Below, piece after piece: positions 29,549-42,093 of a DNA stretch of 64,000 nt. The stretch is from Candidatus Zixiibacteriota bacterium (GTDB taxonomy: Bacteria; Zixibacteria; MSB-5A5; GN15; FEB-12): contig JBFLZR010000004.1 in the NCBI GenBank assembly GCA_040756055.1, positions 186,001-250,000 on the forward strand. Reading direction: 5' to 3'. The notes beneath the pieces are model-generated. The model was not told the origin of the DNA, searched no databases, and saw only the letters and a program-made list of their open reading frames with translations. The first letter of the stretch is position 1. Each line of letters begins with the position of its first letter. The translations under genes and the position numbers were made by a program.

Positions 29549-31282
29549 ATGAGATTTTCCGCGCTTGTAATCGGGGCCATGTGCCTTCTGTTCACGGCTA
29601 ACCTGTTTGCGGCCGAGGTCAATATTGACCGGGTCATTATCCGCGACATGCCACAGGAGAAGATTTTAGAGAGGTTCGGTAAGCTCCCCGGCGAACTGTT
29701 AACCACTGAAGAACTAGTGGCGCTGGCGCCGGAGTCTTTCGACGGGGACACCCTGAAAATGCTGGCGATTCTGATTGAGTGGACAGATCGACTGCACACC
29801 TACAGCCGCGAGACTATGGACAGCCTGCTGTTCTCGCACGACTGCTGGTCGACCGGTTCGGTGGCTGATTATGTCGATGAGGTATCGTATGGTCAGGTGG
29901 CTCTGACCGGTTATGTGACGGACTGGTATAATGCCGGCAAGTATAAACCGACCTGGGGGTCAGATGACTTCATCAACATCCTCACCGTACTCGACCCGGT
30001 GATTGATTTCACGCAGTTCGACGGGAATAACGACGGCGAGGTTGACGCGATCTGTTTTGTCCGTTCGGGTAATGGACAGGAGGATTCGGGCGACCCGGAT
30101 GATATCTGGTCGTATGCCGTGTCGTGGGTCACCGGATGGGGACCATATGACGGGATGCTGGTTACCCACTGGAATACATCGCCGGAAACCAGGCCTTTGC
30201 GGGACCCTGACTTCCCGCTTGAGTTTTCAGGCGTGGACACTCTCAACCGGATCAAGGTCTTTGCCCACGAGCTTTCGCACAATATGGGCATGCCGGATTT
30301 GTATGATTACGATGATAAGCTGGACACCTCGACCTACTCCACCCCCAACGACTACAACGACCACCCCCTCGTGGATTGGTGTCTGATGGGATATGGCGGT
30401 TACGGGCTACTTTCGATGGGTCTGGAAATTCCGACTCATCAGTGCGGCTGGAACAAGATGCAGGCGGGATGGATCGAACCGGTGGTGCTCGATGGTGAGT
30501 ACGAAGACTTGGTGATTTACAATATAGAAACGACCAATTACAACTCGCTTTACAAGATTCCGATTGACGACGCCGAGGGTGAGTATTTCCTCCTGGAGTA
30601 CCGCAATCCGCAATCGACGGCCAAGTTTGACAAGTTTGATTCCGACTTCAGCGCCTATCTGTGGCCGGATTTGACATATGGCTGTGATTCGATTGACCGG
30701 GGGCTTCTGATCACGCACTGCCATGATTCGCTGGTGCCGTTATCGGAGTGGTATCGCTGGAACAACGGTACGCCGGCTTATCCGCACTATTCGGTGGCTG
30801 TCGAGGATGCAGGGTATGATCCGGCTCGCGATTACACCTACAACCCCGAGGGACACACGACTGACAGCGCCCAGTGGTGGTATCCATTCGAGACCCGTCG
30901 CGGAGCCTTGTTCTCCGATGATGTTGCGGGTCAGTCCGAGTTCGGGCCGAACACGGTGCCGAGCAGTGACGGTTATGGCGGACCGAGTAACATATATGTT
31001 CGGGTTGACTCCATTGTCGCCGATCGTATGTATCTGTATGTGAACACCGACTACAGCGGCAGCGGCGGATGTTGTGTACTTCGCGGCGACTTCAACAACG
31101 ATGGTTTTGTTGATCCGCTCGATCTCACCGGCTTCGTGGAATATATGTGGAAGTTGGGTCCGGCGCCATCGTGCCTTGACCAGATTGATATCAACAATGA
31201 CGGTTTTGAAGATCCGCTCGATCTGACTTATCTGGTCAACTACATCTGGAAGGGTGGTCCGGCGCCTGTTGCCTGCCCCTGA
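29549..31282 (+). CDS. secreted M6-family metalloprotease with dockerin-like C-terminus
   Basis: 577 aa with signal peptide (MRFSALVIGAMCLLFTANLFA). The zinc site of M6 (immune-inhibitor-A-like) peptidases is HELSHNMGMPDLYDYDD (His240, Glu241, His244), preceded by the family region VDAICFVRSGNGQED. The C-terminus is a dockerin-like pair (GDFNNDGFVDPLDLTGFVEY and IDINNDGFEDPLDLTYLVNY) ending WKGGPAPVACP. GGAG lies 5 nt before ATG 29549. A close paralogue follows (31561-33285), so the two arose by tandem duplication. Likely an extracellular degradative protease. Confidence 0.9.
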   Translation: MRFSALVIGAMCLLFTANLFAAEVNIDRVIIRDMPQEKILERFGKLPGELLTTEELVALAPESFDGDTLKMLAILIEWTDRLHTYSRETMDSLLFSHDCWSTGSVADYVDEVSYGQVALTGYVTDWYNAGKYKPTWGSDDFINILTVLDPVIDFTQFDGNNDGEVDAICFVRSGNGQEDSGDPDDIWSYAVSWVTGWGPYDGMLVTHWNTSPETRPLRDPDFPLEFSGVDTLNRIKVFAHELSHNMGMPDLYDYDDKLDTSTYSTPNDYNDHPLVDWCLMGYGGYGLLSMGLEIPTHQCGWNKMQAGWIEPVVLDGEYEDLVIYNIETTNYNSLYKIPIDDAEGEYFLLEYRNPQSTAKFDKFDSDFSAYLWPDLTYGCDSIDRGLLITHCHDSLVPLSEWYRWNNGTPAYPHYSVAVEDAGYDPARDYTYNPEGHTTDSAQWWYPFETRRGALFSDDVAGQSEFGPNTVPSSDGYGGPSNIYVRVDSIVADRMYLYVNTDYSGSGGCCVLRGDFNNDGFVDPLDLTGFVEYMWKLGPAPSCLDQIDINNDGFEDPLDLTYLVNYIWKGGPAPVACP

Positions 31283-31308
31283 GCCGGGCTAAATATAAAA
31301 TGATAGAG

Positions 31309-31339
31309 GCCGTCTTCGGTTAAAGACGGCTTCTTCTTT
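31309..31339 (+). terminator. terminator of the first M6 protease gene
   Basis: Perfect 8-bp stem GCCGTCTT / AAGACGGC and a TTCTTCTTT tail. Confidence 0.8.
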
Positions 31340-31396
31340 GTTGCGGGGTAATCTCATTGTAATTGAGTCGGTTGCCGATAATGGACTAAAAAGGCG

Positions 31397-31425
31397 TTGA
31401 CAGAAAGGGCGCGGCAGGGTATCTT
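31397..31425 (+). promoter_or_regulatory. promoter for the second M6 protease gene
   Basis: TTGACA, 17 nt, TATCTT, with TATAAT overlapping further on. The gene therefore has its own promoter behind the upstream terminator. Confidence 0.5.
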
Positions 31426-31560
31426 TATAATAACTTCGAATCAGTACAAGCAGAATGTTCATCCACCCGGCTCCAAGTGAGGGTACCGGTGTATCAACAC
31501 GTACATCGGGGGGCTTGATTTCGAGTTAGATATCGCCGCCTTTGGTCAAACGAGGATTTA

Positions 31561-33285
31561 ATGAGATTGCCGCAGTACATTCTCCTGATCATTTTGCTCG
31601 GTTCTATGGTGGTTTTGGCCCAACCGAATAACCCGGAGCCGGACTACGCGCTTTATTTCGATATGCCCGAGGAGAAGATGATGGCGAGATGGGGCCGGCT
31701 CGCGGGCACGAAGCTGACGGCGGAAGATCTCGAATTGATGGCCGAGTATCAGTTTTTGGGTGACACGTTGAAGCTGTTGGTTATTCCGGTGGAATGGATC
31801 GACCGTCTTTCGACCTGGCCGAGAGAGACGCTCGACAGCATGATATTTTCGCGCGATGTTTACCCGAATGGGTCGCTGGCTGACTATATCTATGAAGTAT
31901 CTTACGGGAAAGTTGTGCTGGACGGGGACGTGATAGACTGGTACAACGCCGGGTATTATGACGTCAAATTTGCCTTTGCGGAGCTGCTCGAAGAGGTGGA
32001 CCCGTTTGTTGATTTCTCCCAGTACGATGGTGACGGCAACCGGAAGGTTGACGCGATTTGTTTCCTTCGCTCGGGCAATGGCGAGGAAGATTCCCAGGAC
32101 CCAAACGACATCTGGTCATATGCCACGGTCAGCGAATGGGGGTTCGGAAGCTTCGATAACGTAAAGGTAGACCATTTTCATACTTGTCCCGAAACGAGAC
32201 CGCTGCGTGACCCACTCGACCCGAGGCAGTTTTCGGGAGAGGATACCTTGAACGGGATTCGAGTTTTTGCCCATGAGTTGGCCCACAACCTGGGCCTGCC
32301 GGATCTTTATGATTATGATGACAAGTTGAAGGAATGGACCTACTATACGCCGAATGACTACAACGACCACCCATTGGTGGACTGGTGTCTTATGGGTTAT
32401 TACGGCTATGGATATCTCTCGCTCGGGTCACGGATTCCATCGCACCCGTGCGGCTGGTCGAAGATGCAGCTCGGCTATATCGAGCCGATAAGCATCGAAG
32501 GTGAAATAAGCGATCTGGTCATATACGATATCGAGACGCATGACGACAGTTCTCTGTACAAGCTGACCATTGATGATTTCGCGCGAGAGTATTTCTTGCT
32601 TGAGTATCGCAATCCTCAATCAACGGGAAGATTCGACAAATTCGACTCCGATTTCAGTGTCTATTTCTGGCCTGACCTGGCGTACGGGGCGGATTCTCTC
32701 GACCGGGGTTTGTTGATAACTCATATTTTCGACTCGTTGACATCGTCGTCGAACTGGTACACCCTCAACAGCTGTACCCCGCGTTACGAGCATTACACGG
32801 TGATGGTTGAGGACGCCGGATACAATCCTGGCTGCAACGTATATTGTAATCCCGAAGGACATGAAACCGACAGCGCCCAGTGGTGGTTTCCTTTCGAGAC
32901 GCGGAAGGGGGCGTTGTTTTCCGATGATGTCGATGGGCAGAGCGAGTTCGGTCCGCAGACTTACCCCAGCAGTGATGGGTACAACGGTTATTCCGGTATT
33001 TATGTCCGGGTGGATTCGATTGTCGGTGATCGCATGTATTTGTACGTGAATACACTGATACCGCTTGTTCATTGCTGCGAAGTTCGCGGCGATATAAATC
33101 ATGACGGTTTGATGGATCCATTGGACGTGACCTTCTTCGTCAACTTCCTGTGGAAATACGGGGAGGCGCCGCCATGCGAAGAGGAGGCCGACGCCAATGG
33201 TGATACGGCGATGGATCCTCTGGATTTGATTTACCTCGTTGACTTTTTCTGGAAAGGCGGCCCGGCGCCTGTTGTCTGCCCGTAA
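31561..33285 (+). CDS. secreted M6-family metalloprotease with dockerin-like C-terminus (paralogue)
   Basis: 574 aa, similar over its length to the protein at 29549. Signal peptide MRLPQYILLIILLGSMVVLA. Zinc motif HELAHNLGLPDLYDYDD (His238, Glu239, His242). Shared landmarks with the paralogue include WSTLxxYTPNDYNDHPLVDWCLMGY-type text and a common GALFSDDV...GQSEFGP segment. The dockerin-like end (GDINHDGLMDPLDVTFFVNF and ADANGDTAMDPLDLIYLVDF) closes with WKGGPAPVVCP. GAGG precedes ATG 31561. It converges on the pilin-like operon 23 nt downstream. Confidence 0.9.
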   Translation: MRLPQYILLIILLGSMVVLAQPNNPEPDYALYFDMPEEKMMARWGRLAGTKLTAEDLELMAEYQFLGDTLKLLVIPVEWIDRLSTWPRETLDSMIFSRDVYPNGSLADYIYEVSYGKVVLDGDVIDWYNAGYYDVKFAFAELLEEVDPFVDFSQYDGDGNRKVDAICFLRSGNGEEDSQDPNDIWSYATVSEWGFGSFDNVKVDHFHTCPETRPLRDPLDPRQFSGEDTLNGIRVFAHELAHNLGLPDLYDYDDKLKEWTYYTPNDYNDHPLVDWCLMGYYGYGYLSLGSRIPSHPCGWSKMQLGYIEPISIEGEISDLVIYDIETHDDSSLYKLTIDDFAREYFLLEYRNPQSTGRFDKFDSDFSVYFWPDLAYGADSLDRGLLITHIFDSLTSSSNWYTLNSCTPRYEHYTVMVEDAGYNPGCNVYCNPEGHETDSAQWWFPFETRKGALFSDDVDGQSEFGPQTYPSSDGYNGYSGIYVRVDSIVGDRMYLYVNTLIPLVHCCEVRGDINHDGLMDPLDVTFFVNFLWKYGEAPPCEEEADANGDTAMDPLDLIYLVDFFWKGGPAPVVCP

Positions 33286-33308: not shown

Positions 33309-34478
33309 CTACAATTCTTTCCACGCAACCATCAACATCCGTCCCGTAGTGCCGTATGCTTTTTTCGCCAGGGCGCGGTCATAGTGAAAACACGAATGGT
33401 TTCGCATGTTGACACTTCCGGCGACGACCGAGCCATAGATATCAGTATTGTTGTCGATGACTACCTCGGTGCTCGGGCCATAAAACGCGGCCCGCAGTTC
33501 CGTGGATTGTCCGAGTATCAGCGAATTCCCCTGCGAGAAGATGGTCAGATTGGCCGGAGACCCGGAGGCGTTCACGGTGCTACTCTGGCCGACCTCGAGG
33601 TTGCCTGTCAGGAAAATGGTAACATCTTCGCCTGGGGCGATTTCTATTTGGGAGGAGTTGCCCATTCTTATATCGGAAAAGAGATAGACACCGCCGGACA
33701 GTTCCAGGGTAGCGTTTTGAGAGAGTTCCAGTTCGCCGGTCCCGTTGCGGTATGTGTACCCGTTACCGCGAAAGCCGTACGGGGCGGAGTTGTTGGCTTC
33801 GGCCCACTGGTAGTCGGAGGTTGAGACAATATCGAGTTCGTTGCGGGGGACGCCGGTGGCGGTGTCTCCGGTGACCTCGGCAATATTCTCCATCGTTATG
33901 CCGTCATCAACAGCGGATGAGGCTCCCCCGTTTACGAGAGCGGTGTTGGTCAGGCTGAGTGGTCCGTTTGATCCGATATCGGCATCGGCGTTGCGCAGAG
34001 TGCCGGCGTAGGAGCCGGAGTCCGAGCGGTAGGAATCGGTGCAGGTATTATTATCCATAGTCAGGCTGTCCTCAGCGAACATGGCGTACCTGAAGGGATA
34101 GCGGTATTCAGGGACCACGGTTGCTTCGAGATTGGCCGAAGCCTGCTGAATTGCTCCGGTGGCTCTGAGCATAACCGTATCGGCCAAGTCGGGCGAGACG
34201 GTGCTATCCACGACCGCCACGGAATAGACTCCCTGTTCGAAAGTCACGTTAACGAACCCGGTATTCCAGCCGGGGTTATTGTTCAGTTCGACAAAAGCTC
34301 TCTGCAGGCCGGCTTCGGCTGTGTAGAACGCCTGGTCGTGGTGCAGAGCGTTAAACGACAGTTCAATGTCGGTTTGGGCGGTATCGACTGCCATTATTGC
34401 CGCCAGGGTGAGCATGAGCATCACCGCCATGGCAATGAGCAGGGCGCTACCGCGCTCGTCGGCGTCTTTTTCTTTCAA
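33309..34478 (-). CDS. PilX-like pilus assembly protein, copy 3 in operon order
   Basis: About 389 aa. An N-terminal hydrophobic helix RGSALLIAMAVMLMLTLAAI follows a short charged leader, as in PilX-type minor pilins. Then come DIELSFNALHHDQAFYTAEA and AGLQRAFVEL (PilX_N). The rest is a beta-helix-like adhesin part with NNTCTDSYRSDSGSY and a C-terminal AAFYGP...YGSVVAG...HYDRAL block shared with the two paralogues upstream. The frame is open to 34562, but TTG 34478, with AGGAG 7 nt before it, gives the same length as the paralogues (388 and 389 aa). Probably a surface-exposed minor pilin or adhesin. Confidence 0.78.
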   Translation of the reverse strand: MKEKDADERGSALLIAMAVMLMLTLAAIMAVDTAQTDIELSFNALHHDQAFYTAEAGLQRAFVELNNNPGWNTGFVNVTFEQGVYSVAVVDSTVSPDLADTVMLRATGAIQQASANLEATVVPEYRYPFRYAMFAEDSLTMDNNTCTDSYRSDSGSYAGTLRNADADIGSNGPLSLTNTALVNGGASSAVDDGITMENIAEVTGDTATGVPRNELDIVSTSDYQWAEANNSAPYGFRGNGYTYRNGTGELELSQNATLELSGGVYLFSDIRMGNSSQIEIAPGEDVTIFLTGNLEVGQSSTVNASGSPANLTIFSQGNSLILGQSTELRAAFYGPSTEVVIDNNTDIYGSVVAGSVNMRNHSCFHYDRALAKKAYGTTGRMLMVAWKEL

Positions 34479-34563
34479 GATAGAACTCCTTGAACAACAA
34501 TTATCGTTGACACATGCCTGGTGTTGATAAATGTTGTCAAAACCCCCTTTGACAAATAGCATC

Positions 34564-34577
34564 TCAGCGCATGTTAC
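34564..34577 (-). promoter_or_regulatory. conserved 14-bp element upstream of a pilX-like gene
   Basis: GTAACATGCGCTGA on the minus strand, 86 nt upstream of the start at 34478. The identical sequence lies 86 nt upstream of the next paralogue (35945-35958). Both are followed by a diverged AAGGGGGTT tract. Confidence 0.45.
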
Positions 34578-34692
34578 CTTCCTGGCCGTCCGTCAGGCTC
34601 CCGGCTGTTTCCGGCGGCCATATATAACTACCCTGACACCCCCTTGCGCCTCAATAAGAAATATATCGACAGACCCGGAGGACTGCTTAACG

Positions 34693-35859
34693 TTAGAATT
34701 CTCTCCAGGCCACCATTTTCATTTCGCCTGTTTTCTTCCCCCTGACTTCAGAGAGGGCCTTATCATAGTGCACACAGGCGATATTGGTCATATCTACGGT
34801 ATTGGCTACAATCGATCCAAAGACCTCGCAGCTGTTTTCCAGGACCAGTTCGGCATCGGGGCCATAGAACGCCGCGCTTATCTCGGTGTCCTGACCCTGA
34901 GTGTAAATTCCACCGGTGGAGAAGATCAGCAAGCTCGGGGGCGGCTGAGTCGGGTTGACCTGTGCCGCCTCCTCGAGAGTGAGGCTTCCCGTCATATAGA
35001 TGATAACATCGGCTCCGGGGGCGATTTCCAGAACCGCGCTGTTTTCAAGCGTGATGTCTGTAAAATAGTACACACCGCTTTGCAGCGTGACAACTTCGGT
35101 CGCGCCGACGGTCAGAGATGTATCCGCCATATTATAGGTATAATCGCCGGACATACCTGTTGAAGCAGCGCTGACACTGGCGGCCCAGTCCATATCTTCC
35201 TGGGTGATTGGATCGAGATGAAATTCGGGAACATCGTCAGTTGTTGTTCCCCAGACATCGGCGTTAATTCCGACAAAGATGCCACTATCTACCGAAGTGG
35301 AAACATCTCCGCCGACACTGGCGATTTCGTCAAGGGTGATGGTGCCATTGGAGGCGATGTCGCCATCGGTTGAGTCAACGGTGGCGTCGTAGTCGCCCAG
35401 TTCCGAGTCCCATGAGTCGGTGCAGGTGTTGTTTCCGAGATTGATGTTCTGTTCGCTGTAGACGGCCCACTGGAACGGATATTCATAGGTAGGAACGACA
35501 ACTGCCTCAAGGTTGGCGAAGCCTTCATCCTTTTTCGCGGTCGCTCTGATCTTGACTGTGTCCACCAGATCGACATCGGTGAAACTATCGACAATAGCCA
35601 CCCAGTACAGGCCGTTTTCGAAGGAGACGTTGGCGTAGCCGGTGTTCCAGTCGTTGTCATCGTTTAACTGCACGAAAGCCCTTCGGAGCCCGGCTTCAGC
35701 CACATAGAAAGCCTGGTCCGACTGGAGCTGGTTAAAGGACAATTCAATATCTGTTTGAGCGGTATTCACCGCCATAATGGCTGCCATTGTCAGCATGACG
35801 AGCAAACAAAGGGTGATTAACAGCGCGCCGCCTTGTTCGTTTAATCTGAGGTTCCCCAA
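34693..35859 (-). CDS. PilX-like pilus assembly protein, copy 2
   Basis: 388 aa. N-terminus GGALLITLCLLVMLTMAAIM is the prepilin-like hydrophobic helix, followed by DIELSFNQLQSDQAFYVAEA and GLRRAFVQLNDDNDWN. The C-terminal signature AAFYGPDAELVL...FGSIVANTVD...HYDKALSEV is shared with the other copies, as is NNTCTDSWDSELGDY near residue 140. It lies 214 nt downstream of the third-copy start region and 230 nt from the first, with repeated sequence in the gaps. A tandem triplication is the simplest explanation. The function is inferred only from the PilX-like N-terminus and operon context. Confidence 0.78.
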   Translation of the reverse strand: MGNLRLNEQGGALLITLCLLVMLTMAAIMAVNTAQTDIELSFNQLQSDQAFYVAEAGLRRAFVQLNDDNDWNTGYANVSFENGLYWVAIVDSFTDVDLVDTVKIRATAKKDEGFANLEAVVVPTYEYPFQWAVYSEQNINLGNNTCTDSWDSELGDYDATVDSTDGDIASNGTITLDEIASVGGDVSTSVDSGIFVGINADVWGTTTDDVPEFHLDPITQEDMDWAASVSAASTGMSGDYTYNMADTSLTVGATEVVTLQSGVYYFTDITLENSAVLEIAPGADVIIYMTGSLTLEEAAQVNPTQPPPSLLIFSTGGIYTQGQDTEISAAFYGPDAELVLENSCEVFGSIVANTVDMTNIACVHYDKALSEVRGKKTGEMKMVAWREF

Positions 35860-35944
35860 AGTACTTCACTCCACTAAATACAACGTTTACCGCTGTAACA
35901 CGCATGATGCTGTTGGACCAGCCAACCCCCTTGATGCTCAGGAT

Positions 35945-35958
35945 TCAGCGCATGTTAC
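35945..35958 (-). promoter_or_regulatory. conserved 14-bp element upstream of a pilX-like gene
   Basis: Second copy of GTAACATGCGCTGA, 86 nt upstream of the start at 35859, the same distance as in the paralogue. Confidence 0.45.
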
Positions 35959-36089
35959 TGTCTTTGTTATCCTGCCGGTCTTCTTTCGAAGGTTTCGGCG
36001 TGGTGACTCCAAGCGACAACCCCGTCACCACCAGCGTTCTTGTCAAAAATATCCCTCATTATCTATCAAAGCCGCTCAGGGCGATTTAT

Positions 36090-37259
36090 CTAATTCTCCT
36101 GCCAGGCGATCATCAACATCTTGCCGGTTGTGCCATAGGGCACTTCCGCCAATGCCATGTCGTAGTGAATACTGCCGGTGTTGAGCGCGTCTATCGATTC
36201 CGCGATTATCGAGCCGTACCAATCGCAACTCTGTCCCAGGTCGACATCGGCATCGGGGCCGTAGAACGCAACGTACAGTTCCGTATCGTTACCTACCGAC
36301 ACGATTTGTCCGTCGGAGAATATCATACAGTCGGCCGGATCTTCGGTCGGATTCACGGAGGTGTTATTCTCCAGAGTGAGAGTCCCATCGAGATAAATCA
36401 CGGCAGATTCGCCCGGCGCCACCATCAGACACGAGTTCGCGGTGAGCGTTATATCTTTAAGATAGTATACACCGGTGTGGAGGTAGGCCGTGTCAGATGT
36501 CCCGAGTATAAGAGACGGCATGGGCGCGGTCCAGGCAAAGTCACCGGTGATACCGGTCATATTATCGTTGTCGGCCGCGGCATCATCGAAATCGGATTGC
36601 GGGATGCTGTCGAGTACATACGGGTCAATGCTATCATCGGTAACGCCGATGACTGTGCATGTGGCACAGACGGTAATCCCGCCGGCATCGGAGGTGGTAG
36701 CATCGCCGGCGACATAGGCCGACTGATCAAGAAAGATTGTGCCGTTGGAGGCAATATCGCCGCCCGTGAGCGTATCAACGGTTGTAGCATAGGTACCGGA
36801 GTCAGAATTGTAGGAGTCAGTGCACGTGTTGTTGACCATATTGATACCATCTTCGCCGAACATGGCAAACTGGAACGGGTAAATCAGTTCAGGTACAACG
36901 AGGGCGGTGATATTCGCGTTGGCATCTTCGACTGAACCCGCCGACCTGATGGTGACGGTATCATACATCGGCTGAGCCGTATCGCCGTGGATAATGATGG
37001 TGGAGTAAAACCCCCGCTCGAAACTCACCTGTGAGTAGGCCGTATCGAGATCATTGTCCGCGTTGAGGTCCACAAAGGCTCTTTTGAGTCCCGCTTCGGC
37101 GACATAGAATGCCAGGTCGCCGTTCAGCTGGTTGAACGACAGGTCTATATCTGTCTGTGCCGTATTTACCGCCATAATTGCCGCAATCGTCAAAATTAAC
37201 ATAAGCCCCAATGTTATAAGTAGCGCCCCACCGTTGCTGCTCTGAAGCTGCTTCATCAA
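36090..37259 (-). CDS. PilX-like pilus assembly protein, copy 1
   Basis: 389 aa. The N-terminal helix GGALLITLGLMLILTIAAIM and DIDLSFNQLNGDLAFYVAEA define the PilX-like part. NNTCTDSYNSDSGTY and the C-terminal VAFYGPDADVDL...YGSIIAESID...HYDMALAEV match the two downstream copies. It begins 13 nt after the pilW-like stop codon, so it is cotranscribed with pilV and pilW. Expected location is the pilus tip or cell surface after inner-membrane assembly. Confidence 0.8.
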   Translation of the reverse strand: MMKQLQSSNGGALLITLGLMLILTIAAIMAVNTAQTDIDLSFNQLNGDLAFYVAEAGLKRAFVDLNADNDLDTAYSQVSFERGFYSTIIIHGDTAQPMYDTVTIRSAGSVEDANANITALVVPELIYPFQFAMFGEDGINMVNNTCTDSYNSDSGTYATTVDTLTGGDIASNGTIFLDQSAYVAGDATTSDAGGITVCATCTVIGVTDDSIDPYVLDSIPQSDFDDAAADNDNMTGITGDFAWTAPMPSLILGTSDTAYLHTGVYYLKDITLTANSCLMVAPGESAVIYLDGTLTLENNTSVNPTEDPADCMIFSDGQIVSVGNDTELYVAFYGPDADVDLGQSCDWYGSIIAESIDALNTGSIHYDMALAEVPYGTTGKMLMIAWQEN

Positions 37260-38412: not shown

Positions 38413-38607
38413 GCGGGGCCGCGACAGGTTGCGCGGGCGTAACAAATTGTCTTTATTAGAGTTAGTTGATGGCGGGGGTGGATTGATAGTAAATTCAACC
38501 GGCAATTCATTACGTACGGGGCGAAGCAGGGAAATACCGAAAGTTCTTTCTGACGACGGGCCCCAACGGGCAAGGGATTCCGGTCTGCATCGGACTGGGA
38601 GGCGGAT

Positions 38608-38652
38608 GTGTCAGGTCAGAATTCCGGCTTCGTCAAAATCAAGACCTGACAC
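38608..38652. repeat. GTGTCAGGTC inverted repeat, copy 2
   Basis: Perfect 10-bp arms GTGTCAGGTC / GACCTGACAC followed by AACGG, as at 29107-29150; the inner loop has diverged. Confidence 0.8.
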
Positions 38653-38660
38653 AACGGCTA

Positions 38661-38749
38661 ACGCTGGTCTCCTTGCATAGCATACAATATTTCTTTCAAG
38701 GTGAATATATGCCAATGTGTAAACCATCTGCCCGGAATGAACTGTAAAG
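38661..38749. repeat. 89-bp direct repeat, left copy
   Basis: Begins ACGCTGGTCT and contains GCCAATGTGTAAACCATCTG. It matches 42005-42093 at most positions and in the same orientation. Together they bound the islet with the RHS/M15-like gene. Otherwise 38321-39091 holds only the sigma-28 promoter and the inverted repeat at 38608. Confidence 0.85.
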
Positions 38750-39091
38750 TTTGAACTTCCGGCCTTCGAGTTATGAGCCGATTAAGTTGTCCAAGCAATA
38801 GAAAATACCAGATACTAACCTGTAGTAATAGCAATTACCTACGGGAAACCAAGTGTCTGGTGTTTTTCCTTATTTTCTGCTGTTTTGGCTAATTCTTCTA
38901 GAAAACTGTTAGAAAGAGGTATGGGTCAGACTGGTGTCAGCTGCCCGCCGAAGTCGATGTCTTTCCCCTATTACTTCGGGCTACGAATCCGATTGCTCCT
39001 CATCAGGCTTTTAACAGATATTTCGCATTTGCCTTTCAAGCCAGCCATCAGTATATTCAACTCAAGCAGATATTAAGTGCGGAGGAAATCA

Positions 39092-40114
39092 TTGCGGCGG
39101 ACACTCACATACCTGTTTATCACAGCCCTTATCATCGGATGCGTTTCTACGCAAAGCTTTACTGCAGACTATGCCGAGAGCAGCCGGTCTGATTACAGCC
39201 TTTGCGATTTGCCATCGATACCTGAACAAGATGTTGATATCGGCCTGTGGGCTCTTGTAATTGCCAAAGAATGCGACAGCAGTGTCCAGATAAACAAATA
39301 TCTTCACACCCTCGACACGATGGCATTGCGAATTCAGTATATGGTCGGACCCCGTGAAGGTGACATGGTTCGACTGCTGATGACGAAAATGTACCAATTC
39401 GAACCGGGCGAATGGAATAGCGGCAATATTTTTTCGTATGATCTGAATGACCCCTTTGGTGAACAGCCCGGAGCCAGGCTTCTTACGACCTATTTGGATA
39501 CCCGCAAGGGCAATTGCGTTAGTATGCCTACGCTCTTTCTGGCCCTTATGGAGAGAGTAGCTCCCGACGTGCCTTTCAACGGTGTCTCAGCACCCCTTCA
39601 TCTGTTTTGCCGATTGCATGATCGCCAGGATGGCAATATTTGGAATGTTGAATCGACTAATGGCGGTGAACCCGCCAGAGAGCAGTGGTATATTAAAACC
39701 CTTGGAATCAGCAGGTTGGCCATTGACAGTGGATCATATATGCGTGACCTTACCAAGAAGGACTTTATCGCTGAGCTACTGGGTATCTTAGTCTCGAAGT
39801 ATCGAAATGCCCGTGAATACGAAAAAGCGCTGGATTTTGCGGAACTTATGCTGAAACTGAACCCCAGATCATTGAATGGTTTGGTACAAAAAGGAGCACT
39901 GTTGGCTTGGGTGGGCCTCACGTTACAGGAACAATTGATGGTACAGCAGCGTCATCCATCAGCGGAAGAGGCCGACAAGTTAGGGCTTTACAAGGTGGAG
40001 TCAGACAAATATATTGAAAGAGCACGAACTCTCGGATGGGAGCCCGAGACACCGGGGTCGCGGGAGGATTACCTGAGAACCATAAGAGCGGCACAATCTA
40101 TAGGATCGAAATGA
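39092..40114 (+). CDS. lipoprotein with SirB1/transglutaminase-like domain and TPR-like tail
   Basis: About 341 aa. The N-terminus MRRTLTYLFITALIIGC ends in a lipobox (I-I-G-C), so the protein is probably lipid-anchored. The core resembles the SirB1/Transglut_core2 fold: KGNCVSMPTLFLALMERV carries the candidate catalytic Cys and VSAPLHLFCRL the His. The C-terminal helices (REYEKALDFAELMLKLNPRS) look like a TPR. The frame is open from GTG 39077, but GGAGG lies 6 nt before TTG 39092. A 47-bp part of its 3' end recurs in the broken gene at 41471-41931. The substrate is unknown. Confidence 0.7.
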   Translation: MRRTLTYLFITALIIGCVSTQSFTADYAESSRSDYSLCDLPSIPEQDVDIGLWALVIAKECDSSVQINKYLHTLDTMALRIQYMVGPREGDMVRLLMTKMYQFEPGEWNSGNIFSYDLNDPFGEQPGARLLTTYLDTRKGNCVSMPTLFLALMERVAPDVPFNGVSAPLHLFCRLHDRQDGNIWNVESTNGGEPAREQWYIKTLGISRLAIDSGSYMRDLTKKDFIAELLGILVSKYRNAREYEKALDFAELMLKLNPRSLNGLVQKGALLAWVGLTLQEQLMVQQRHPSAEEADKLGLYKVESDKYIERARTLGWEPETPGSREDYLRTIRAAQSIGSK

Positions 40115-40129
40115 GAGGGAGACAATTGG

Positions 40130-40861
40130 ATGAAGAATTCTGACCTTTTGATTGGCGTAGTGGCAGCGCTGGCGGCAATGCTCTTGCCGATGCAGGCGAC
40201 GGGGAGGTTTGTTGCCACCGATCCGCACGCTTTCAAATATCCGTCGATTTCTCCTTACGTCTATGTGGCGAATAATCCGCTGATCTATCTCGATCCAGAT
40301 GGAAAAGACATTCTGAATGACCAAAGGAATGTTATTAGCAATAGTCAGGTGTTCTGGAGTTTAGTAATATTTAACGCCACCCTTGGTGGTATTACAGGGA
40401 AAGATCCGAGTGATATTTCTATTACGGTAACTGGAGGGGATCGGCATATAGAAGGGGACGGTGCCTACTCTTGTACTGACGGGAAATTCGTAACCAGAAA
40501 TAAGAAGACACTTCACGCTGTGGAGAATGGTGCCAGAGCAGTTGATGTACGACCGGTCCCGGAGATTTCGTGGAATGATATATATAAGGCAGCACGATTG
40601 ACCGGTTATACCCAAATTCTAAATGAACACAATCACTATCACTTTGGATTGCCGCCAGAAAGTGCCTCGCCGAGCTGTGAGGAATGTCAGAAACCCTATG
40701 TGGATTTCGAAGCGATTGAGTTTGGACACAACAAAAACACCAGGGGAAAAGGTTTTAAGGTAATTCATGGCTGGGTGTGGCGTAAAGCTGTCTACAAAGA
40801 CGGTAGCGAAGAAATCGTTGAGCGATACCCCGTGACTGTTGTTGTGTCTGACGATGAATGA
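40130..40861 (+). CDS. RHS-core remnant fused to a predicted M15-like peptidase domain (secreted effector candidate)
   Basis: 243 aa. A hydrophobic N-terminus (LLIGVVAALAAMLLPMQATG) is likely a signal peptide. Directly after it comes the end of an RHS core, GRFVATDPHAFKYPSIS followed by YVYVANNPLIYLDPDGKD, without any YD repeats before it. The tail carries a possible M15 zinc site: His129 in LHAVENGARAVDV, Asp139, and the pair His169/His171 in EHNHYHFGLP. The His-to-Asp spacing is wider than usual. M15 enzymes cut peptidoglycan peptides. GGGAG lies 7 nt before ATG 40130. A small secreted protein gene follows after 4 nt, as with immunity genes. Confidence 0.62.
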   Translation: MKNSDLLIGVVAALAAMLLPMQATGRFVATDPHAFKYPSISPYVYVANNPLIYLDPDGKDILNDQRNVISNSQVFWSLVIFNATLGGITGKDPSDISITVTGGDRHIEGDGAYSCTDGKFVTRNKKTLHAVENGARAVDVRPVPEISWNDIYKAARLTGYTQILNEHNHYHFGLPPESASPSCEECQKPYVDFEAIEFGHNKNTRGKGFKVIHGWVWRKAVYKDGSEEIVERYPVTVVVSDDE

Positions 40862-40865
40862 GTCT

Positions 40866-41387
40866 ATGATGAAGGCTAATTTAGTGAGAGTAAACACCGT
40901 GTCCCTGCCGACTTGTATTACCGTTGTGGTGGTGTTTACATTGCTATTGGCGGGAGGTCACTCCGCTGGAAGGCAAAAAGACTGCCAAGACTTCTGGGAA
41001 TACACCTACCCATACATTGAGGAAATTCATACTGGGCCACTAATTGAATTGAAGGACAGCACGCGCTTGGAGTTCTCGGGGAGTTATGATACAAGCAAGT
41101 ATGTCGGTTACTACTACCGAGTGCTTATTTCGAATGCTAAAGAATGGGGCTCTATTATTGTAGACAAAATTAGCGTGATAAGAACTCATGATGAATACGA
41201 CGAGCGTGTGATAGACACTTCGTATTTTATCGACTACCCTTCACTTCTTAAGTCGGAAGGCACTGAAATCAGGTTCATTGAATGGTCCTCATCGACGAAA
41301 ATTAAGGTTGAATTGTTTCGCCACGATTGTTACGAGTTTTCACTAAGTCCGGATCCCGACAGCGTAACTGCCAATATCTGCAAGTAA
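40866..41387 (+). CDS. small secreted protein, immunity-protein candidate
   Basis: About 174 aa. The N-terminus has a basic start and a hydrophobic segment (CITVVVVFTLLLAGGHSA), so it is exported or membrane-anchored. The mature part is beta-rich and acidic with two or three Cys, and matches no family I know. It starts 4 nt after the stop codon of the RHS/M15-like gene (in-frame starts also exist at 40854 and 40839 inside that gene). This tight linkage, its small size and predicted export to the same compartment fit an immunity protein, but that is inference from context only. Confidence 0.5.
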   Translation: MMKANLVRVNTVSLPTCITVVVVFTLLLAGGHSAGRQKDCQDFWEYTYPYIEEIHTGPLIELKDSTRLEFSGSYDTSKYVGYYYRVLISNAKEWGSIIVDKISVIRTHDEYDERVIDTSYFIDYPSLLKSEGTEIRFIEWSSSTKIKVELFRHDCYEFSLSPDPDSVTANICK

Positions 41388-41470: not shown

Positions 41471-41931
41471 ATGATGTCCAGGCATTCGTTGATACTTTTT
41501 AAGACAGTACGCTGGGCGGTTGCGATATCTTCTCTGCTACTGATGACAGCAAACTGTCAGGACTCGAGAGATGACTCTGGACGGCCTATGCCGGTGTATG
41601 AGGAGGGCTGCAGGCCTCTGATGAAAGCATGCATCAGGAGTGGTTGCAAACCGATGGTGAACTAACGATTGTATTTGGGAAGAAACTGGTTTTACTGCTA
41701 AATCCGAATGCTTTTTATGAGGAGTTTTCTGTTGATACAATTGATTATGAAAGATTCATAGAGGGTCTGGATAATATGGCAGAGCAACGTCATCCATCAG
41801 CGGAAGAAGCGGGCAAGTTAGGGCTTTACAAGGTTGATCCAAGGGCAGAACCCTCTTCCACAATAGAATACAATCGTGAGCGGTTCTGCCAATCTTCGAT
41901 ATTAACACTTACAACACTTCGATTCGATTGA
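41471..41931 (+). pseudogene. frameshifted lipoprotein-like gene
   Basis: The first part (41471-41665) encodes a signal peptide-like start (AVAISSLLLMTANCQ) and then stops. The second part continues in another frame (from about 41602 to 41931). A one-base shift in the GAGGAGGG run near 41602-41608 would join them into one protein of about 150 aa. The end of the second part, MAEQRHPSAEEAGKLGLYKV, repeats a stretch of the lipoprotein at 39092, nearly identical in DNA (41788-41834 against 39950-39996). A strong AAAGGGGGG site precedes the start. It looks like a decayed member or a rearrangement product. Confidence 0.55.
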
Positions 41932-42004: not shown

Positions 42005-42093
42005 ACGCTGGTCTTCTTCTATGGCATACAATACCTCTTTCAAAGTGAATAGATGCCAATGTGTAAACCATCTGCCCGGAAAGAACTGTTAAG
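42005..42093. repeat. 89-bp direct repeat, right copy
   Basis: Same orientation as 38661-38749, with scattered substitutions and no indels. It ends 26 nt from the 3' end of the tRNA-Ser gene. Confidence 0.85.

What the first reader, a model, noticed from the sequence alone, without database searches (positions are those of the whole stretch)
40130..41387. Orphan RHS tip fused to an M15-like peptidase domain, with a tightly linked exported partner
A signal-peptide-bearing remnant of the RHS core (YVYVANNPLIYLDPDGKD) without YD repeats carries a C-terminal domain with a possible H...D...HxH zinc site. A small exported protein starts 4 nt downstream. This looks like an effector-immunity cassette acting on peptidoglycan, in an unusually compact, stand-alone form.
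Basis: partly seen in the sequence, partly recalled or inferred. Interest (0 to 1): 0.75.

Follow-up and report, generated by a model that had tools for sequence, protein, structure and literature searches.

The report
Mini-RHS toxin operon with transglutaminase gene
This bacterium carries a three-gene unit that looks like a very small exported antibacterial weapon (a cell-wall-cutting-type enzyme on a 35-residue remnant of a normally giant toxin carrier, its probable antidote, and a helper enzyme gene), and the same unit recurs in related bacteria with a different warhead each time.

Summary
Residues 1-58 of the 243-aa ORF (40130-40861) are a signal peptide plus the last ~35 residues of the RHS core. 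The rest is a Hedgehog/M15 metallopeptidase-fold domain (AlphaFold pLDDT 82; nearest solved folds Hedgehog-N, Zn DD-peptidase 1lbu, Ply500, VanX, VanY), with TGGDR...H...GA..xD...HxH invariant in seven aligned sequences. In relatives the domain sits on RHS proteins or tips followed by a small exported protein, mostly of one homologous family, so an effector-immunity role is likely.

The main new point: the same signal peptide plus truncated core recurs in three other Zixibacteria, each directly downstream of a homologous transglutaminase-like gene (61-64% identical; window 39077-40114) and each with an unrelated C-terminal domain (TseH-like; M91-like; unassigned). N-termini align strongly (z 25-28), C-termini do not (z -0.5 to 2).

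This is a polymorphic-toxin format reduced to signal peptide, RHS cleavage motif and toxin, with a fixed transglutaminase-like gene and an exported downstream gene: a new variant of a known kind. Toxicity, substrate and delivery are untested.

The parts
39077..40114 (+). Upstream transglutaminase-like (Transglut_core2) + TPR-like exported protein, 345 aa; candidate catalytic residues Cys147, His175 and Glu192 (in place of the usual Asp), kept in all four homologous loci
   Evidence: PF13369 E 2.8e-6 over cut-off; homologs 61-64% identical 13-20 nt upstream of the mini-RHS gene in G080, G087, G089
40130..40201 (+). Signal-peptide-like N-terminus of the tip protein (residues 1-24)
   Evidence: Hydrophobic stretch score 2.75, above all controls; hydrophobic N-terminus at the same place in three homologs
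40202..40303 (+). Remnant of the RHS-associated core (residues 25-58), with both DP motifs of the autoproteolysis signature, 19 residues apart
   Evidence: TIGR03696 positions 41-75; same truncation in G080, G087, G089
40310..40663 (+). M15/Hedgehog-fold domain; candidate zinc site His129, Asp139, His171 (with His169), Arg105 of TGGDR
   Evidence: Alignment A6, AlphaFold pLDDT 82.3, VIA-align neighbours all Hedgehog/M15 at the top
40664..40861 (+). C-terminal extension of the tip (about 65 residues), no relative found
   Evidence: Outside the aligned domain
40854..41387 (+). Exported downstream partner, putative immunity protein (alternative ATGs at 40854, 40866, 40869)
   Evidence: Sequence; hydrophobic N-terminus; relative in G046 at 25% identity; weak similarity to partners of compact M15-like tips in Bacteroidales
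41471..41931 (+). Decayed stretch: a lipoprotein-like start (41471) whose continuation is in another frame (41629), ending in a 62-nt copy of the transglutaminase gene's 3' part (41776-41837)
   Evidence: Repeat D2, 89%; tblastn 81% over 21 aa
42119..42210 (-). tRNA-Ser(GCT), right border of the accessory stretch
   Evidence: ARAGORN

Best explanation
39077-41387 is a compact, Sec-exported polymorphic toxin operon. The tip protein is exported by its own signal peptide (inferred). It carries only the double-DP cleavage segment of the RHS core as a hinge, followed by a metallopeptidase-type toxin domain of the M15/Hedgehog fold that most likely cuts peptide stems of peptidoglycan in competing cells (inferred). 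The exported downstream protein most likely binds and blocks the toxin in the producer's own periplasm, as an immunity protein (inferred from recurrent pairing). The upstream transglutaminase-like exported protein is a fixed part of the locus and may mature, anchor or cross-link the toxin, perhaps at the DPDG segment (speculative). Shown: gene order, conservation, polymorphism of the C-termini, fold. Not shown: toxicity, substrate, immunity, delivery beyond the producer's envelope.
For: Conserved N-terminus with unrelated C-termini in four genomes; C-termini are enzyme domains known from effectors (TseH E 6e-25, M91 E 8e-5 slightly under its cut-off) or of M15/Hedgehog fold; transglutaminase-like gene 13-20 nt upstream in 4 of 4 and absent around other fetched RHS loci; exported gene immediately downstream in three, a lipoprotein-like frame in the fourth; the M15-like domain is followed by exported partners, mostly homologous to each other, in own genome, Zixibacteria, Comamonadaceae, Deltaproteobacteria and Bacteroidales; the retained core is the stretch with the known cleavage signature (PMC8636562).
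Against: No experiment. The window tip gets no Pfam hit and the core match is below the curated cut-off. His-Asp spacing is 10, not 7 as in typical M15 enzymes (from general knowledge), and metal geometry could not be measured. The window partner's relation to other partners is weak, and one relative lies at a contig end with no RHS tip visible. A signal peptide puts the toxin in the producer's own periplasm and no route out is known. Only four loci are known.
Confidence: 0.68

Rival explanations
1. Silent displaced tip: a dissociated RHS C-terminus left by C-terminal displacement (Jackson et al. 2009, PMC2935791), joined by accident to a hydrophobic start.
For: Other RHS fragments in the genome look like dissociated tips; a decayed stretch lies just downstream.
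Against: Same truncation point, signal peptide and upstream gene in four genomes; TIGR03696 finds no other core within the window's contig nearer than about 72 kb; dissociated tips lie downstream of intact rhs genes and mostly lack starts.
Confidence: 0.06
2. Domesticated envelope enzyme: the operon does peptidoglycan or protein processing in the producer's own envelope, and the small exported protein regulates it.
For: Sec signal, no known route out; transglutaminase-like and peptidase-type domains are common in envelope maintenance (general knowledge).
Against: C-terminal domains are unrelated between loci, which a housekeeping function does not predict; same-genus genomes held lack RHS cores; the same domain ends full RHS proteins elsewhere.
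Confidence: 0.14
3. The downstream protein is a secretion chaperone or adaptor rather than an immunity protein.
For: Some RHS effectors need accessory proteins (PMC4524185, title); binding is untested; its model matched only generic beta-sheet folds.
Against: Partners vary with the toxin domain and not with the conserved N-terminus; genes in this position behind related RHS-shell toxins were shown to be immunity genes (PMC13018210).
Confidence: 0.1

Closest known systems
RHS polymorphic toxins (e.g. Photorhabdus Rhs1, PMC8636562)
   Same: Core segment with two DP motifs, followed by a variable toxin domain and a downstream partner gene
   Different: No YD repeats, no shell, no PAAR or other T6SS part; own signal peptide; 234-254 aa instead of well over 1000; transglutaminase-like gene upstream
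Dissociated ('orphan') rhs tips (Jackson et al. 2009, PMC2935791)
   Same: Core fragment plus tip without repeats
   Different: Not downstream of an rhs gene; conserved signal peptide, start, truncation point and upstream gene
Sec-dependent polymorphic toxins with an inactive transglutaminase domain (Zhang et al. 2012, PMC3482391)
   Same: Signal peptide, transglutaminase-fold protein and RHS-derived sequence linked to variable toxins
   Different: There the transglutaminase domain is fused in front of RHS repeats and has lost its triad; here it is a separate upstream gene that keeps Cys and His (Glu for Asp), and there are no repeats
Bacterial teneurin-like proteins (PMC13018210)
   Same: Signal-peptide-bearing, polymorphic C-terminal toxin, immunity gene immediately downstream
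   Different: They have a full YD shell; this protein has none
M15 peptidases (Streptomyces Zn DD-peptidase 1lbu, Ply500, ChiX, VanX/VanY) and Hedgehog N-domain
   Same: Predicted fold; order of Arg, His, Asp and HxH motif residues
   Different: Three extra residues between His and Asp; below Pfam M15 thresholds; attached to an RHS remnant

Membership tests
Polymorphic toxin system | Conserved N-terminal trafficking part with non-homologous C-terminal toxin domains | tested here: met
   N-terminal z 25-28, C-terminal z -0.5 to 2 among four loci
Polymorphic toxin system | Immunity gene immediately downstream | tested here: inconclusive
   Exported gene present at 0-10 nt in three of four, lipoprotein-like frame without a clean start in the fourth; immunity itself not tested
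Polymorphic toxin system | Toxic activity of the C-terminal domain | not testable with these tools
   Only domain similarity is available
RHS/YD-repeat protein | YD/RHS repeats forming a shell | tested here: not met
   No repeat match in the ORF
RHS/YD-repeat protein | Rhs_assc_core TIGR03696 over the curated cut-off | tested here: not met
   29.3 bits against 32.5, positions 41-75 only
M15 peptidase | M15/Hedgehog fold | tested here: met
   Top VIA-align rows Hedgehog-N and M15 enzymes, Z 6-8.3, 94-103 residues aligned; Z values of this size need caution, but the family is coherent
M15 peptidase | Zinc ligands His, Asp, His with catalytic acid nearby | tested here: inconclusive
   Residues invariant in seven sequences; spacing 10 instead of 7; geometry not measured
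M15 peptidase | Pfam M15 model over its gathering score | tested here: not met
   No hit for the window; three relatives have sub-threshold PF08291 hits of 13.5-17 bits against 23.2
Dissociated rhs tip | Lies downstream of an intact rhs gene with matching core | tested here: not met
   Nearest other core is about 72 kb away on the contig
T6SS cargo or specialised effector | PAAR/VgrG/Hcp or similar T6SS module in the protein | tested here: not met
   No such match in Pfam or NCBIfam. Whether the genome has a T6SS was not tested

The most novel reading that the evidence does not exclude
A distinct class of Sec-dependent polymorphic toxins in which the giant RHS shell is replaced by a minimal 35-residue RHS cleavage segment plus a trans-acting transglutaminase-like exported enzyme that matures, anchors or delivers the toxin, with toxin-immunity cassettes swapped in behind that enzyme's gene.
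Probability: 0.35. Interest if true: 0.8.

Novelty: new variant of a known kind. Interest (0 to 1): 0.63.

Why it matters
RHS toxins are understood as cargo locked inside a large shell that must be opened. A natural format that keeps only the cleavage segment, with its own signal peptide and a dedicated transglutaminase-like gene, would show that the segment works without the shell, and it offers small, tractable proteins on which to test what the core and the upstream enzyme do. It also points to an M15/Hedgehog-fold toxin family, with a recognisable exported partner family, that current Pfam and NCBIfam models do not capture.

Tried and rejected
Single-sequence searches for the tip against PDB chains, plasmids and genome contigs found nothing useful; the paralog at contig 4:1140 was needed as a bridge. 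Viral contigs gave no relatives. A profile search of PDB sequences gave only chance hits. I suspected by eye that the C-terminus of the G087 protein is shared with the 2206-aa RHS protein of the own genome; shuffling rejected it (z 0.7). The partner's model (pLDDT 68) matched only generic beta-propeller blades, so no fold is claimed. PADLOC gave no hit. A full-text search for Zixibacteria together with RHS found no paper. The 89-nt repeat at 38661/42005 was examined as an integration boundary, but a third copy at contig 7:48727 lies among unrelated genes, so it is only a dispersed repeat. An empty-site comparison in the genus failed because the neighbouring FapA gene has no close ortholog there. 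The G033 hit (L017) was a chance match in a repeat protein.

Full report
Where it is. The window lies in contig 4 of a 3.3-Mb assembly, G000. Its class-mate G115 corresponds to record CP070742.1, 'Candidatus Zixiibacteriota bacterium' (same coordinates of the match), so the host is taken to be a member of the Zixibacteria.

The observation. ORF 40130-40861 encodes 243 aa. Residues 1-24 are a hydrophobic, signal-peptide-like stretch. Residues 23-58 match TIGR03696 positions 41-75 at 29.3 bits, under the 32.5 cut-off. Of ten RHS cores in the genome, this is the only one reduced to the last ~35 positions. There is no YD repeat and no Pfam hit. The partner ORF can start at 40854, 40866 (4 nt after the tip's stop) or 40869.

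The C-terminal domain. A paralog at contig 4:918-1694 shares VTGGDR...GARAVD; with it, two more were found in G115. An alignment of four then found MAGs labelled Bacteroidales, Comamonadaceae and Deltaproteobacteria, and two more genomes of the order of the first followed. In seven aligned sequences TGGDR, H, GA, D and HxH are invariant. AlphaFold gives pLDDT 82.3. The structural neighbours are Hedgehog-N (Z 8.3), the zinc DD-peptidase 1lbu (Z 8.0), Ply500 and LysB4 (7.0), ChiX (6.7), VanX (6.6) and VanY (6.1), that is, the M15/Hedgehog superfamily; Foldseek alone is weaker (best E 9e-3, also Hedgehog). Three relatives have Peptidase_M15_3 as best, sub-threshold Pfam hit. The fold is therefore well supported. 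The metal site is plausible but has three extra residues between His and Asp compared with typical M15 enzymes (general knowledge), and its geometry was not measured.

Toxin and partner. In relatives the domain ends an RHS protein or tip and is followed closely (from overlapping to about 50 nt) by a small exported protein. The partners in the own genome, G115, the Comamonadaceae and Deltaproteobacteria MAGs and L062 form one homologous family; in L047 that partner is split in two frames. The compact tips of L052 and L061 have another exported partner family. The window partner and its relative in G046 resemble that second family weakly: hhalign probability 35, E 4e-4; shuffle z 3.6-5.3, but one presumably unrelated pair also reached 5.0. 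So the pairing is well supported for the domain family and only suggestive for this particular pair. The G046 relative lies at a contig end behind the end of an alpha/beta-hydrolase gene, with no RHS tip visible, which decides nothing.

The locus. The decisive finding came from searching 127 relatives with TIGR03696. Seven ORFs keep only the end of the core. Four of them, the window protein and those of G080, G087 and G089, have a signal-peptide-like stretch directly before RW(I)SVDP...KYPS.SPYVY..NNPL.YIDPDG. Each of the four starts 13-20 nt after a Transglut_core2/TPR gene; the three others are 61-64% identical to window 39077-40114. The other three truncated ORFs (G035, G063, G131) show neither a signal peptide nor that gene in the fetched sequence; one is at a contig end. 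The N-termini of the four align with z 25-28; the C-termini do not align. The C-terminal domains are M15/Hedgehog-type (window), TseH-like (G080, PF25218 E 6e-25), M91-like with HEGAH (G089, E 8e-5, slightly under cut-off) and unassigned with HEVAE (G087). TseH belongs to a clade of permuted NlpC/P60 enzymes found in conflict contexts, with phospholipase activity reported (PMC12994826), so the warheads need not share one target. An exported gene follows within 0-10 nt in three; in G089 a lipoprotein-like frame follows without a clean start. Variable domains on a fixed N-terminus with exported neighbours are what polymorphic toxin systems look like (PMC3482391).

What the retained core may do. 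Full RHS toxins cut themselves after two DPLGL motifs about 17 residues apart, with the catalytic Asp in the second motif (PMC8636562). The mini proteins keep exactly this stretch: two DP motifs with 19 residues between them, the same in all four and in the 2206-aa RHS protein of the own genome. The simplest reading is that the stretch serves as a cleavable hinge. Whether it can cleave itself without the shell, or is a site for the transglutaminase-like protein, is unknown. That protein keeps Cys147 and His175, with Glu192 where Asp is usual (triad assigned by motif); unlike the fused, inactive transglutaminase domains of Zhang et al., it may be active.

Accessory nature. The three same-genus genomes held have no RHS core match. 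The region has lower G+C (0.43-0.49) than its flanks (mostly 0.50-0.54), borders a tRNA-Ser gene, and a 62-nt copy of the transglutaminase gene's 3' part lies in a decayed stretch downstream. This fits cassette exchange of the kind described as C-terminal displacement (PMC2935791) but does not prove it.

Limits. Only four loci of the mini format are known; searches of further genomes were exhausted. Whether the genome has a T6SS was not tested. Signal peptides were judged by hydrophobicity and homology, not by a trained predictor. No toxicity, binding or enzymatic data exist.

Verdict. 'Orphan remnant' should be replaced by 'one allele of a recurrent, signal-peptide-bearing mini-RHS locus with a conserved upstream gene'. 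I file it as a new variant of polymorphic toxin system, not as an RHS protein (repeats and core cut-off not met) and not formally as an M15 family member (curated cut-off not met), although it very probably works like an M15-fold enzyme.

Noticed in passing
L038 (G000 contig 4:1-6000), L039, L040, L041, L042, L044: The genome has a large RHS arsenal (ten cores, two very long genes), much of it at contig ends, with different tips followed by small, often exported genes; one tip (L040:2026-2958) has an HExxH-type motif (HEIWHAYW).
   Followed up: partly
L011:1705-2415 and L028:2000-2227: Alpha/beta-hydrolase-like genes lie next to a tip in the own genome's RHS array and next to the G046 relative of the window partner; possible coincidence.
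   Followed up: no
38661-38749, 42005-42093; G000 contig 7:48727-48815: 89-nt dispersed repeat (89-93% identical) on both sides of the locus and once elsewhere.
   Followed up: partly
38602-38658: About 50-nt element with an inverted repeat (GTCAGGTC.../...GACCTGAC), with about 18 partial copies across the genome.
   Followed up: no
33309-37259 (-): Three tandem paralogous pilus-assembly-like proteins (ALLIT...AIMAVNTAQTDI) with strongly diverged C-terminal parts, next to pseudopilin-like genes.
   Followed up: no
29549-33285 (+): Two tandem paralogous exported metallopeptidase-like proteins (HELSHNMG / HELAHNLG) with dockerin-like C-terminal repeats.
   Followed up: no
L047:1997-2526: The partner gene of one G115 M15-like tip appears split in two frames while the tip ORF is intact: sequencing error or lost immunity.
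   Followed up: no
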